Assembly (NCBI RefSeq): GCF_014204945.1
Contig: NZ_JACHMN010000002.1
Span: 1,564,503-1,628,502, forward strand
From: Allocatelliglobosispora scoriae
Lineage (GTDB): Bacteria; Actinomycetota; Actinomycetes; Mycobacteriales; Micromonosporaceae
Length of the DNA: 64,000 bases
Direction of reading: 5' to 3'
The notes beneath the pieces were generated by a model. The model ran no database searches and was not told the origin of the DNA. It saw only the letters and a list, made by a program, of their open reading frames with translations. Position 1 is the first letter of the stretch. Each line of letters begins with the position of its first letter. This document shows, in pieces, positions 3,373 to 7,184 of this stretch. Both the position numbers and the translations under genes were made by a program.

Positions 3373-3816
3373 ATGCCAATCATCGATCGACTTGCCTCCG
3401 TCAGCGATCTTCCGGACTCCCACGGCTACGCCCACGCCGTCGTCGCGTCCGGTCCGCTGGCCTTTATCGCAGGTCAGGTCGCGATGGACGCCGACGGCAA
3501 CCTCGTCGGGGCCGACGACATCCGCGCACAGACCGAGCAGGCAATGCGCAATCTGGAAGCAATCCTGACGACGCTCGGCGCGGGTTGGGCCGATGTCGCC
3601 CGGCTCGGTTGGTACGTCCTGGACACCTGTCTGGTCGACGGCACGGGCCTGCAGGTGATCCGCGACGTACGCGACGAGTTCCTCCGTCCGGCGCTCGGCG
3701 ACCGGGTCAACCCGGCCAGCACGCTGATCGGTGTCGGCGGACTCTTCCGGCCCGGTTACCTCGTCGAGGTCGACGCCGTGGTGGCGGTGCCGGAGCGCGG
3801 TCGGCGCAGCTCGTAG
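3373..3816 (+). CDS. RidA family enamine/imine deaminase-like protein
   Basis: 147-residue protein with the RidA (YjgF/YER057c/UK114) fold. Family members hydrolyse reactive enamine/imine intermediates of PLP enzymes as trimers. Visible hallmarks are GPLAFIAGQVAMDADGNLVG in the first third, AQTEQAMRNLEAILTTLGAGWADVARLGWYV in the middle and the C-terminal strand GYLVEVDAVVAVPE. The C-terminal catalytic Arg region differs from canonical RidA (no clear R in the PARS motif; NPASTLIGVGGL instead), so it belongs to a divergent subgroup and activity is uncertain. Its last 61 bases overlap the end of the convergent membrane-protein gene. Confidence 0.85.
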   Translation: MPIIDRLASVSDLPDSHGYAHAVVASGPLAFIAGQVAMDADGNLVGADDIRAQTEQAMRNLEAILTTLGAGWADVARLGWYVLDTCLVDGTGLQVIRDVRDEFLRPALGDRVNPASTLIGVGGLFRPGYLVEVDAVVAVPERGRRSS

Positions 3817-6080
3817 ACGGCGAGCCGGCCGTTGTCGAAGCGCAGGTCGGCGAGGTCCGCCACGAGGGGTGACTCCGGTCCGGTGTCCCGGTCGACGACG
3901 AGCCACCGCACGCCGTAATCGTCGCGCAACCGGGCCAGCCCGTCGGCGGTCGGGCCGGAGATCGCGGAGTCGTTGAGGCTCAGCAGCGGCTGGTCCCAGA
4001 AGAGGGCCAGGTCCGGGGAGTGCGCCTGCGCGAACCGGCCGGGCGCGAAGCCCCAGCTCTCGACGAGCACCCGGCGCTCGGCATAGGCGCTGAGCCAGAA
4101 GGAGACCGGATCGCAGGTCGCGCCCTCGCCGACCCGGCAGTGCACGTTGGTGACGAGGATGTCGGAGGGTGCGCTGTGATCGCGTACCCATCTGGCGGCC
4201 TCGACCCGCGCCTGCGGCATCGGGACGTTGAAGTAGGCACCGCCGTTGGGCGACCGCTCGGCTTTAGCCGCGTCCATGGCGAAGGCGGGCGCGCCCGCGA
4301 CCAGGACCGCGGTGAGCGCGATCGCCGGACCGGCACCGCGCAGGGCCGGACGGCGCTGCACCACCGCGGTCCAGGCGATCCAGGCGACGACGCCGACCCC
4401 GCCGAGGATCAGCGCCCACAGCACGATCGGTGCGATCTGGCCGTAGACCGACGGGCTGGGCGCGAGGTCGAGCTGAACCCCGGTGAGGATCACGGCGAGG
4501 ACCGCACCGCCGGTGACGACCGCACCGCGCCAGGCCGGGCGGAGCGAATCGAACGCCGTCGACCAGCCCCAGGCGGCGAGCAGCACACCGAAGGTGAAGC
4601 CGGCGCGGGTGAAATACTGGCTGTTGACGCTGCTGAAGGCGAGGTAGAGCAGCGGTCCGGCAAGCGCGCCGCCGAGCAGGAAGACCTGTTCGGGAGCGAG
4701 CGATGCGGGTCCCCGCAGCAGCGGCACCGCCCCGACATATTTGATCAGCATGCTGATCAGGAACGCCGCCACGACCATCGCCACCGGCTCGCCGTTGTCC
4801 CAGTAGAAGCGCAGGTTGGCGAGCGGGTCGAGGACGAGGCCGTAGGTCTCGAAGTGGAACAGCACCGCGGTCGCGAAGAGCTGCGCTCCGGCGACGATCG
4901 CACCGAGCCCGATGACGGTCCAGGGCAGCCGGGTCCGCAGATTAGAACCCGCTGACCAGCCTCGGACCAGCAGGACCAGCCCGGTGAGTGCGAGCGCCAG
5001 CAGCGTCACCGGCAGCGAGCTCGCCTTGGCACCGCTCGACGCCAGGGACAGAGCGCCGACCAGGACGAACATGCCCGTAGTCGGGCGCCGCAGGGCCGAG
5101 GTGACCGCCATGATCAGGGCGAGCAGCAGCACCCAGCTGTAGATCATCGACATGCCGTGCCAGATGACGAACATCGACTGCGTGCCGAAGGGCTGGCCGA
5201 CCGGGTCGGTGAAGGTGATCTCGCCGATCACCCAGAAGAGCACCGCGGCACCGACCCCGGCGTAGGGCCGCCCGGCGAGCCGCCACCCGATCACGCCGGT
5301 GAGCACGATCGCCGCAGCGCTCAGCCCCGGCACCACCAGCCGCAGCGAGACGACCGGCAGATCGACGCCGCCGACCATGCTCACCATCGCCATGTGCACG
5401 TAGCCGAACCAGTGGTAGTGCAGCGGCACCCCGCTGAGCTGCGGCACCTCGATCGGGAAGTGGTGCTTGGCCTCACCGGCGAGTGAGAGCTGGTAGGCGA
5501 GGTCGAGGTACTGCCGGGTGAGCTCGCCCTCGGGCAGGACGGGGTTGCGCTCCAGGAAGACCACCGACAGGTACGCCATGAAGAAGACCACGACACCCGC
5601 GATCGACCACGACCACCCCAGCGGTGTCGGGGCATAACCCGTGACCCGCCAGTGCCGTCGCAGCCGGGGGACCAGCGCGAACGGCACCAGCACCGCCAGC
5701 GGCCACAGCGCCGTCCAGCCGCGCAGGTCGAGCAGCGAGAAGGCGAGCCAGGCGGGGATCTCGAGGCAGAGGCCGACGGCGATCCCCATCGCGACATCCT
5801 CGACGAAGGTGTGCGGGGTGCGCCGCAGCGACCGGTAGACCAGGGTGCCCGGCAGCGCGACGGCGAGCACGGCGTAAGCGGCGTAGCGCAGGAGGTCCAG
5901 CGGGGCGGTGTCGGCCCGCAGGAGCACCACGACGGCGGCGAGGACGGCAGCGGCGAGGGGTGCCCACCGCTGCCACCCCGGAGCCGGACCGGTCGCAGCC
6001 GCCTCGGGTGTCGCCACGGCTGCCGACGGGGTGGTCGTCTCGGCGGTCGCCCCAGCGGTCGTCCTCACGAAAGCGAGCAT
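3756..6080 (-). CDS. Large polytopic membrane protein, possible GT-C type glycosyltransferase
   Basis: About 774 residues with roughly a dozen or more hydrophobic segments, starting with WAPLAAAVLAAVVVLL near residue 45, and a soluble C-terminal domain of about 180 residues ending in SGTATTASTSTR. The layout (large loop with HYHWFGYVHMAM and charged residues after TM clusters, then an extracytoplasmic tail containing RWVRDHSAPSDILVTNVHC) resembles uncharacterised actinobacterial GT-C-like mannosyl/arabinosyl transferases that use polyprenyl-linked sugars. I cannot identify a catalytic motif with confidence, so this is a suggestion only. I chose ATG 6080; an in-frame GTG at 6098 is possible. 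Its 3' end overlaps ridA by 61 bp on the opposite strand. Confidence 0.75.
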   Translation of the reverse strand: MLAFVRTTAGATAETTTPSAAVATPEAAATGPAPGWQRWAPLAAAVLAAVVVLLRADTAPLDLLRYAAYAVLAVALPGTLVYRSLRRTPHTFVEDVAMGIAVGLCLEIPAWLAFSLLDLRGWTALWPLAVLVPFALVPRLRRHWRVTGYAPTPLGWSWSIAGVVVFFMAYLSVVFLERNPVLPEGELTRQYLDLAYQLSLAGEAKHHFPIEVPQLSGVPLHYHWFGYVHMAMVSMVGGVDLPVVSLRLVVPGLSAAAIVLTGVIGWRLAGRPYAGVGAAVLFWVIGEITFTDPVGQPFGTQSMFVIWHGMSMIYSWVLLLALIMAVTSALRRPTTGMFVLVGALSLASSGAKASSLPVTLLALALTGLVLLVRGWSAGSNLRTRLPWTVIGLGAIVAGAQLFATAVLFHFETYGLVLDPLANLRFYWDNGEPVAMVVAAFLISMLIKYVGAVPLLRGPASLAPEQVFLLGGALAGPLLYLAFSSVNSQYFTRAGFTFGVLLAAWGWSTAFDSLRPAWRGAVVTGGAVLAVILTGVQLDLAPSPSVYGQIAPIVLWALILGGVGVVAWIAWTAVVQRRPALRGAGPAIALTAVLVAGAPAFAMDAAKAERSPNGGAYFNVPMPQARVEAARWVRDHSAPSDILVTNVHCRVGEGATCDPVSFWLSAYAERRVLVESWGFAPGRFAQAHSPDLALFWDQPLLSLNDSAISGPTADGLARLRDDYGVRWLVVDRDTGPESPLVADLADLRFDNGRLAVYELRRPRSGTATTASTSTR

Positions 6081-6114
6081 AGACGGCAGGCGACCCACCG
6101 GCCGGTCGCCCGGA

Positions 6115-6843
6115 TCACAGGCGGATGCTCGTCACCATCCGGCCGGTGACGGCGGCGATCGGCACCGGGCCGAAGATCCGGGAGTCCCCGGACGACTCGC
6201 GCGCGTCGCCGAGCAGGTAGACGGTGCCGATCGGCACCGTCAGCGGATCACAGACGGTGCGGGTGCCGACCTCGAGGTAGTCCTCGGCCACCAGCTCGCC
6301 GTTGCGGAGCAGGACGCCGTCGCGGCACTCGATGGTGTCGCCGGGCAGCCCCAGGACTCTCTTGATCATGGTCTCACCGGCGACGTCGGCGGTGACGACG
6401 TCGCCGTGGGCGAGGCCGGTCCAGCGGAACCCGACCTTGTCGATGATGACGCGGTCGTCGATCTGCAGGGTCGGCGCCATGGCACCGGACGGGATGTAGG
6501 CGACGCCCGCCGCGAAGGCCTGGACGGGCACGGCGAGCACCACGACCGACACGACCACGACCACGGCCCGGCGGCGCAGTCGGACGAGAGCGGAGCCCGG
6601 GTCAGTGGCAGGGCGCAGCCGCCCGATGGCCCGCAGTGCGCTCGCGCTCCACCGCAGCCCCTCCCAGGAGCCCGTGGTCTGGTCGAACTCGGCGAGCATC
6701 GCCTCGCCCCACTCGATACCGCGCTCGGCGCTGCGGTGGGCCGCCTCGGCCCGGTCGGCGGTGGCGGTGCCGTGGGTGTGGAGTCGGCGTACCCGGAGAA
6801 GGAGCGCGCGGCGGGCCGCGCGGCGCAACCATGGCTCGGTCAT
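6115..6843 (-). CDS. Signal peptidase I-like protein lacking the catalytic serine, with extra N-terminal domain
   Basis: 242 residues. A cytoplasmic, helical N-terminus of about 90 residues, unusual for this family, precedes one membrane span (about 92-114) and an S26 peptidase domain. The box with the nucleophile reads IPSGAMAPTL (117-126): Ala121 (codon GCC) stands where LepB has its catalytic Ser. Lys161 in IKRVLGLPGD (160-169), the general base, and box E GDARESSGDSR (212-222) are intact. It may therefore be a pseudoenzyme, or Ser119 may act instead. The ATG at 6843 overlaps the padR stop (ATGA), so the two proteins are translationally coupled, and the N-terminal domain may be a PadR-partner module. 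Start set by that overlap. Confidence 0.85.
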   Translation of the reverse strand: MTEPWLRRAARRALLLRVRRLHTHGTATADRAEAAHRSAERGIEWGEAMLAEFDQTTGSWEGLRWSASALRAIGRLRPATDPGSALVRLRRRAVVVVVSVVVLAVPVQAFAAGVAYIPSGAMAPTLQIDDRVIIDKVGFRWTGLAHGDVVTADVAGETMIKRVLGLPGDTIECRDGVLLRNGELVAEDYLEVGTRTVCDPLTVPIGTVYLLGDARESSGDSRIFGPVPIAAVTGRMVTSIRL

Positions 6844-7160
6844 GATGCCGTCCTGGGGATGAGGGTGGTGGGAGCGGGGGTTGCCGGTCCGGCGGCGGCG
6901 AGCCGCGCGTTGGCGAGGTCGAGGCCGTCGGCGGTGGCGCGGTAGAGGTGGCGCGGCGGGCGGCCGACCTGCTCGGCGGGCTCCCACCGGGTCTCCAGCA
7001 GGCCTCGGTCGACGAGGCGGGCCAGGATCGGGTAGAGGGTGCCGGGCGCGAGGCCCGTCTGCTTGCTCAGGGCATAGCCGTAGTGCCAGCCCTGCGGGTC
7101 GTCCACCAGGCAGCGGAAGACCCGCAGGGTCTGCGGCGAGCTATCCGGTTGTCGCGGCAT
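6840..7160 (-). CDS. PadR family transcriptional regulator
   Basis: 106-residue winged-helix protein. The hallmark PadR segment is YGYALSKQTGLAPGTLYPILARLVDRGLLETRWE (about 27-60), followed by the wing RHLYRATADGLDLANARLAA. It lacks the longer C-terminal dimerisation helix of subfamily 1, fitting the short subfamily 2. The stop overlaps the start of the signal-peptidase-like gene, so it likely controls that gene and itself. A candidate palindromic operator lies just upstream of its start (7167-7184). Confidence 0.93.
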   Translation of the reverse strand: MPRQPDSSPQTLRVFRCLVDDPQGWHYGYALSKQTGLAPGTLYPILARLVDRGLLETRWEPAEQVGRPPRHLYRATADGLDLANARLAAAGPATPAPTTLIPRTAS

Positions 7161-7166
7161 CTCTAA

Positions 7167-7184
7167 AGTCTATATATGGAGACT
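7167..7184. promoter_or_regulatory. Candidate PadR operator/promoter, AGTCT-N8-AGACT
   Basis: Inverted repeat AGTCTATATATGGAGACT in an AT-rich patch a few bases upstream of padR, between padR and the 3' end of the LysE gene. On the minus strand it contains the -10-like TATATA followed by GACTTTAGAG and the ATG at 7160. Autoregulation by PadR proteins through such AT-rich dyads is common, and the assignment here is inferred from position and symmetry. Confidence 0.5.

What the first reader, a model, noticed from the sequence alone, without database searches (positions are those of the whole stretch)
6115..6843. Signal peptidase I homologue with catalytic Ser replaced by Ala, coupled to PadR
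The nucleophile position reads Ala121 in IPSGAMAPTL while the general-base Lys161 and box E GDARESSGDSR are intact. It also has an about 90-residue helical N-terminal extension, and its start codon overlaps the stop of a PadR regulator. A membrane pseudoprotease in a regulatory pair would be a new kind of use of the S26 fold; alternatively Ser119 may serve as the nucleophile.
Basis: partly seen in the sequence, partly recalled or inferred. Interest (0 to 1): 0.6.

Follow-up and report, generated by a model that had tools for sequence, protein, structure and literature searches.

The report
PadR-paired signal peptidases losing catalysis
In one family of actinobacteria, a membrane protein built like the enzyme that trims exported proteins is tied to a gene repressor and has repeatedly lost its cutting residues, which suggests a cutting enzyme being turned into a sensor or binding protein.

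Summary
Window 6115-6843 (-) encodes a 242-aa type I signal peptidase (S26) homologue with Ala121 at the nucleophile position; Lys161 and box E are intact, and its start overlaps the padR stop by 4 nt.

It belongs to a family of 45 distinct members found in 354 genomes of its bacterial family, each beside padR (one padR truncated). Only 16 of 45 keep both Ser and Lys, against 91 of 91 ordinary S26 proteins. At least 6 changes of dyad state are needed, or 10 if only losses are allowed. The window's closest relatives have Ser, so its Ala is a separate loss. Nine dyad-less pairs show dN/dS 0.24-0.52.

The N-terminal module also heads other PadR-adjacent membrane proteins (16 of 19). A partly palindromic site precedes padR in 44 of 44 scorable loci.

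Best reading: an autoregulated repressor and membrane-partner unit whose outer signal-peptidase domain, often non-catalytic, binds peptide or preprotein. What it senses is inferred. SipA and HAAS-PadR pairs are precedents: a new variant of a known kind.

The parts
6840..7160 (-). padR: 106-aa winged-helix repressor, first gene of the pair
   Evidence: PF03551 E 1.4e-10; PadR on the same strand immediately upstream in 45 of 45 family loci, truncated in one of them, L050
7165..7185 (-). Putative PadR operator TAGTCTCCATATATAGACTTT (core 7167-7184), 4 nt before the padR start codon; probably overlaps the promoter of a leaderless message (inferred)
   Evidence: Similar site before padR in 44 of 44 scorable loci; the only exact copy of the core pattern in the 9.15 Mb genome
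6115..6843 (-). S26-like membrane protein, 242 aa, with Ala121 in place of the nucleophile
6610..6843 (-). N-terminal helical module (residues 1-78; W45, G46, A48, E52, W65 conserved), probably cytoplasmic and PadR-facing (inferred)
   Evidence: No Pfam match better than E 0.14 among 17 module sequences; shared with other membrane proteins, 16 of the 19 examined with padR beside them; three helices predicted at low confidence for the L009 relative
6502..6570 (-). Membrane helix, about residues 92-114
   Evidence: Hydrophobic run read from the sequence; helix 86-109 in the low-confidence model
6118..6501 (-). S26 domain, extracytoplasmic by analogy with signal peptidases
   Evidence: PF10502 match at residues 91-237; solved signal peptidases, best E 9.5e-30
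6481..6483 (-). Ala121 codon (GCC) at the nucleophile position
6361..6363 (-). Lys161 codon, general base retained
6190..6192 (-). Ser218 codon, box E serine aligned with E. coli Ser278
   Evidence: role of Ser278 from PMC4049620
6325..6327 (-). Cys173 codon, one of two family-invariant cysteines
   Evidence: 45 of 45; also common in ordinary S26 controls
6250..6252 (-). Cys198 codon, family-specific invariant cysteine (disulfide with Cys173 inferred)
   Evidence: 45 of 45; Cys in no control sequence that covers this column

Best explanation
The two genes form an autoregulated repressor and membrane-partner unit. PadR binds a partly palindromic site at its own promoter and represses the padR-S26 operon (sequence evidence, no experiment). 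The S26 protein sits in the membrane with a helical module inside and a signal-peptidase-fold domain outside. The inner module, shared with other PadR-adjacent membrane proteins, relays the state of the outer domain to PadR (inferred). In the window organism the outer domain cannot cut by the usual Ser-Lys mechanism; it keeps the fold residues around the site and most likely binds an exported peptide, uncleaved preprotein or envelope compound (inferred). Relatives range from an intact Ser-Lys pair to loss of both, so binding rather than cleavage appears to be the common retained function.
For: Dyad kept in 16 of 45 family members against 91 of 91 ordinary S26 sequences covering both positions. 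At least 6 changes of dyad state unordered, 10 if loss-only; Ser 11 or 12, Lys 5 or 7. Box E Asp213 and Arg215 and Cys173 and Cys198 kept in 45 of 45. dN/dS 0.24-0.52 in 9 dyad-less pairs, against 0.20-0.43 in 7 dyad-intact pairs, 0.43 in 2 mixed pairs (one of them window-L008) and 0.38 and 0.45 in 2 ordinary LepB pairs. Ser218 kept in 19 of 19 members with Lys, lost in 22 of 26 without. padR adjacent in 45 of 45, one truncated; no PadR-like frame in 61 control loci. Site before padR in 44 of 44 scorable loci; in one genus, within one mismatch, in 20 of the 22 genomes that carry the family and 0 of the 45 that do not. The N-module heads other membrane proteins, with padR beside 16 of 19 examined. 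Two ordinary LepB genes with intact dyads remain in the same genome.
Against: No experiment; nothing shows that the module touches PadR or what is sensed. Pfam HAAS does not match and the fold search of the module found nothing at E 0.001 or better. 16 of 45 members look catalytically intact, so capture without cleavage is not obligatory. The Lys-Ser218 association is not significant once relatedness is allowed for (3 independent pairs on well-supported branches, sign test median p 1). The left half of the site is weak in some loci, such as L048 and L052. With two mismatches allowed, the own-genome site count (3) equals that of the reversed control pattern (3). No conserved second target was found, so the output beyond the operon is unclear. 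Some lineages show damage (L050, L085, L131).
Confidence: 0.55

Rival explanations
1. PadR-controlled binding or assembly protein: the S26 domain is the output (chaperone-like, as proposed for SipA), made when PadR itself binds a compound; no signal passes from the membrane protein to PadR.
For: SipA keeps the peptide-binding cleft without the dyad and is needed for pilus assembly (PMC4049620, passages). The site points only to its own operon in the genomes searched.
Against: The N-terminal module recurs on other membrane proteins beside padR (16 of 19 examined), which favours a role toward PadR.
Confidence: 0.22
2. Decaying accessory signal peptidase: an active, PadR-controlled spare enzyme that became dispensable and is losing residues on the way to loss.
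For: Patchy presence (45 of 354 genomes at the threshold used); damaged loci L050, L085, L131; intact LepB paralogues in the window's genome.
Against: dN/dS well under 1 in 9 dyad-less pairs; invariant Cys pair and box E residues; a 7-member clade (support 100/99) in which every member lacks Lys yet keeps its frame, padR and site.
Confidence: 0.17
3. Still an active protease using Ser119 or another residue.
For: Lys161, Ser119 and Ser218 are all present in the window protein.
Against: Ser119 is not specifically kept in Ala121 members (9 of 11) and is as common in dyad-intact ones (13 of 16); it aligns with the oxyanion Ser88 of E. coli LepB (recalled).
Confidence: 0.04
4. Sequencing or assembly error at codon 121.
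For: The closest relatives have Ser; one base separates Ser TCC from Ala GCC; only the window's own genome bore its genus label.
Against: Ala, Gly, Glu, Thr or Pro stands at 121 in 17 other members from other genomes; the rest of the gene is intact.
Confidence: 0.02

Closest known systems
Type I signal peptidase (LepB/SpsB; TIGR02227)
   Same: S26 profile, conserved boxes, membrane anchor plus outer domain, Lys161 and Ser218
   Different: No Ser nucleophile; N-terminal helical module; family-specific Cys198; coupled to padR
SipA of Streptococcus pyogenes (non-catalytic S26, PDB 4n31, 4k8w)
   Same: S26 fold without a working dyad, peptide cleft kept (PMC4049620, passages); matched by the family profile (4n31 E 1e-12) and by the low-confidence model
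   Different: SipA lacks both Ser and Lys and serves pilus assembly; no PadR partner or N-terminal module is mentioned in the passages read
HAAS-PadR pairs (PMC11237479, passages)
   Same: Membrane protein with an N-terminal three-helix domain beside a stand-alone PadR; proposed there as an alternative to two-component systems
   Different: The module does not match Pfam HAAS_TM and has no GxP motif; the passages read name no signal peptidase domain among the fusions
LstR and Lmo0599 PadR operons of Listeria (PMC6624303, abstract)
   Same: PadR repressors that mainly regulate their own operons; one operon holds a RodA/FtsW homologue shown not to have that function
   Different: Other membrane domains
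AyrR-AyrA secretion-stress pair of Staphylococcus aureus (PMC5727409, passages)
   Same: Autorepressor plus adjacent membrane protein that relays preprotein accumulation
   Different: AyrA is a predicted six-helix DUF3169 protein without an S26 domain; AyrR was not compared with PadR here

Membership tests
Type I signal peptidase (active enzyme) | S26 profile and fold | tested here: met
   profiles and solved relatives; low-confidence model also matches them
Type I signal peptidase (active enzyme) | Catalytic Ser in box B | tested here: not met
   Ala121
Type I signal peptidase (active enzyme) | General-base Lys in box D and box E GD.R..S.DSR | tested here: met
   Lys161, LGDARESSGDSR
Type I signal peptidase (active enzyme) | Cleaves signal peptides | not testable with these tools
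   needs an assay
Non-catalytic S26 of the SipA type | Loss of the Ser-Lys dyad with the S26 domain kept | tested here: met
   Ser lost, Lys kept in the window; both lost in 15 of 45 members
Non-catalytic S26 of the SipA type | Place in a pilus gene cluster | not tested
   only the two flanking genes were searched: a LysE-type translocator and a 780-aa protein without a Pfam match
HAAS-PadR pair | Stand-alone PadR encoded beside it | tested here: met
   45 of 45 loci, one truncated
HAAS-PadR pair | HAAS domain by profile | tested here: not met
   no HAAS match in 17 module sequences; no PF08006 match in the window's genome at E 1
HAAS-PadR pair | Three helices with a kinked third helix and GxP motif | tested here: inconclusive
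   three helices predicted at pLDDT 69 for the L009 module; no GxP motif in the aligned modules
PadR family regulator | PF03551 winged helix | tested here: met
   E 1.4e-10, over cut-off

The most novel reading that the evidence does not exclude
A signal peptidase has been turned into the sensing half of a PadR two-protein signalling unit: the outer S26 cleft captures signal peptides or unprocessed preproteins (or a signal-peptidase-directed antibiotic) without cutting, and the inner module passes this to PadR, which controls the amount of the sensor itself. Catalysis has been lost repeatedly because only capture matters.
Probability: 0.3. Interest if true: 0.8.

Novelty: new variant of a known kind. 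Interest (0 to 1): 0.56.

Why it matters
The ordinary signal peptidases examined here keep their Ser-Lys pair without exception (91 of 91), so a related family that has lost it many times while keeping the fold residues is a natural experiment in turning an enzyme into a binder. If the outer domain reads unprocessed preproteins, it would be a single-pass secretion-stress sensor in actinobacteria and would couple the signal peptidase fold to transcription. Intact and dyad-less orthologues give ready-made comparison pairs.

Tried and rejected
Ser119 as nucleophile: not supported by conservation. Sequencing error: cannot explain the family. A conserved downstream partner: the 780-aa gene after the S26 gene was not found in the other family loci, and the largest cluster of downstream same-strand frames spanned 10 loci; most loci carry only about 1.5 kb of flank, so farther genes were not seen. 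A wider regulon: no conserved second target; two genomes (G096, G110) carry a second, divergent copy of the site, facing a frame that looks like an AraC fragment joined to a dehydrogenase in G096 and no frame of 40 aa or more in G110 (names of that frame by eye). HAAS by Pfam: no match. Module against PDB by sequence (best E 1.6) and by fold: nothing. The full-length model is poor (pLDDT 55), so no Ser119-Lys161 distance is claimed.

Literature: no paper joining PadR and an S26 domain was seen in the listings, which were capped (20 of 2,549 papers listed, 15 of 21, 12 of 95, none found, 10 of 113). Searches for inactive signal peptidases (none; 12 of 79 listed; 9 listed) led me to follow up SipA alone; the other listed papers were not read. 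Staphylococcus aureus SpsA is recalled as another inactive S26 protein and comes from no call. The library lacks most subscription journals.

Rows dropped before counting: four duplicates (L041, L043, L044, L054, the same genes as L009, L008, L010 and the window); one ordinary-looking match (G161) was not fetched; L085 (module core deleted) is in the 45 but not in the trees; L131 (S26 with its anchor and nucleophile box deleted, no padR frame) is not in the 45; L050 (padR truncated) is left out of the site count; one control frame cut off before the Lys position is left out of the 91 (another, L113_10, ends just after Lys and is counted).

Full report
What is there. On the minus strand, padR (6840-7160) is followed by a 242-aa S26 protein (6115-6843) whose ATG overlaps the padR stop by 4 nt. 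The S26 match is strong (PF10502 E 1.7e-31, TIGR02227 E 3.5e-33), and the profile of ten family members finds solved signal peptidases (best E 9.5e-30) and SipA (4n31, E 1e-12). The nucleophile position is Ala121; Lys161 and box E are intact. The same genome holds two ordinary signal peptidases with Ser and Lys (L001, L002).

The family. The profile (alignment) searched over 354 genomes of the same family gave 51 matches in 48 genomes at E up to 1e-38. Of these, 45 matches, one in each of 45 genomes, are of this type; the other 6 cover only the S26 part, and the 5 of them that were fetched are ordinary signal peptidases. The window and the three named loci are the same genes as four of the 45, so 45 distinct members remain; the threshold makes this a lower bound. 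In 394 genomes drawn from the class, only the window's own gene matched over the module at E up to 1e-33; the other listed matches start at profile position 56 or later, except one (L124) from position 21 with a stop inside, whose S26 part is ordinary. The arrangement therefore looks confined to this family, Micromonosporaceae by the named relatives, in the genomes searched.

Catalytic residues. Position 121: Ser 27, Ala 11, Gly 4, Glu 1, Thr 1, Pro 1. Position 161: Lys 19, Arg 10, Gln 3, Asp 3, Leu 3, Met 2, and one each of Tyr, Ile, Glu, Val and Ser. Both Ser and Lys: 16 of 45; neither: 15 of 45. The control is the set of S26 frames that the same profile finds in 59 other loci, several per locus: 91 of 91 that cover both positions keep Ser and Lys. 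By contrast Asp213, Arg215, Cys173 and Cys198 are invariant in 45 of 45. Ser218 aligns with E. coli Ser278, which PMC4049620 describes as stabilising the catalytic Lys. It is kept in 19 of 19 members with Lys and lost in 22 of 26 without it; allowing for relatedness leaves 3 independent pairs on well-supported branches and no significance, so this is suggestive only.

History. A tree built without four active-site columns puts the window with Ser-bearing L008 and L045 (support 99/94), so Ala121 arose on the window's own branch. At least 6 changes of dyad state are needed unordered, or 10 if only losses are allowed; for Ser 11 or 12, for Lys 5 or 7. A first tree with those columns gave 6 or 8 for the dyad, 11 or 12 for Ser and 5 for Lys. 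Deep forks are weakly supported. Nine dyad-less pairs, 17 members in all, have dN/dS 0.24-0.52; seven dyad-intact pairs 0.20-0.43; two mixed pairs 0.43, one of them the window with L008; two ordinary LepB pairs 0.38 and 0.45. The counting method is crude in GC-rich genes, but none of these looks neutral.

Regulation. padR lies upstream on the same strand in 45 of 45 members, with an in-frame start codon overlapping the padR stop by 4 nt or 1 nt; in L050 padR is truncated. No PadR-like frame occurs in 61 control loci, some of which overlap each other. Just before the padR start a site like AAGTCTACATATGTAGACTTT recurs in 44 of 44 scorable loci, 4-6 nt from the start codon in 42; in L056 and L060 the scan picked a second, divergent copy 27 nt away, and the near copy is also there. 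Paired positions average 6.3 of 10, range 2-10, against 2.7 for shuffled sites; sites were located with a palindromic consensus, which flatters this figure. In the window's genome the core pattern, written from the window's own site, has no other exact copy (7167-7184); with two mismatches allowed the count equals that of the reversed control. In 67 genomes of one genus a site within one mismatch occurs in 20, all among the 22 that carry the family, and in none of the other 45; the reversed control gives none. Closeness to the start codon suggests a leaderless message (inferred). This supports autoregulation.

The N-terminal module. Residues 1-78 match no Pfam family. A module search over the 354 genomes listed 103 matches, of which by my count 59 are outside the S26 family; I took 20 of these 59. 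One (L131) is a damaged S26 member; 19 are other proteins, each with five or more hydrophobic segments, and padR is upstream on the same strand in 16 of these 19, including one in the window's own genome (L150); L133, L135 and L141 have none in the stretch taken. Another such protein (L096) had been seen before, also with a PadR-like frame. In the four examined (L132, L134, L136, L150), similar repeats precede padR, judged by eye. A low-confidence model of the L009 module gives three helices (pLDDT 69), the number described for HAAS domains in PMC11237479, but neither profile nor fold search links it to HAAS and the GxP motif is absent.

How it most likely works. Shown by sequence: dyad loss, retained S26 residues, conserved pairing with padR, conserved site. 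Inferred: PadR represses its own operon; the module inside the cell signals to PadR; the outer domain binds something peptide-like. The closest working models are SipA, which keeps the cleft without the dyad (PMC4049620, passages), PadR repressors of membrane-protein operons in Listeria (PMC6624303, abstract), and AyrR-AyrA, where a membrane protein relays preprotein accumulation to an autorepressor (PMC5727409, passages). What is sensed and what follows beyond the operon are open.

Novelty. Non-catalytic S26 proteins and PadR membrane-partner pairs are each known. Their union, with repeated loss of catalysis, was not seen in the capped listings of searches. I rate it a new variant of a known kind.

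Noticed in passing
window 3756-6098 (-): 780-aa protein, hydrophobic throughout, 16 nt downstream of the S26 gene if its GTG start is right; no Pfam match and not found beside the other family members within the flanks held.
   Followed up: partly
L131 (G358), L085 (G361), L050 (G019): Damaged relatives: S26 with anchor and nucleophile box deleted and no padR frame; module core deleted; padR truncated.
   Followed up: partly
L056 and L060 (G096, G110), upstream of padR: A second copy of the site faces the other way; the divergent frame in G096 looks like an AraC fragment joined to a dehydrogenase, and G110 has no such frame.
   Followed up: partly
window 6508-6519 (-), residues 109-112, and L008, L045: The membrane helix ends in AFA or AYA before Ala, like a signal peptidase cleavage site; seen by eye in the window and its two nearest relatives, not checked across the family.
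   Followed up: no
G000:C3:2875002-2875160 (L150) and L132-L149: A broader set of membrane proteins with a related N-terminal module, most with an adjacent padR; the module has no Pfam match.
   Followed up: partly
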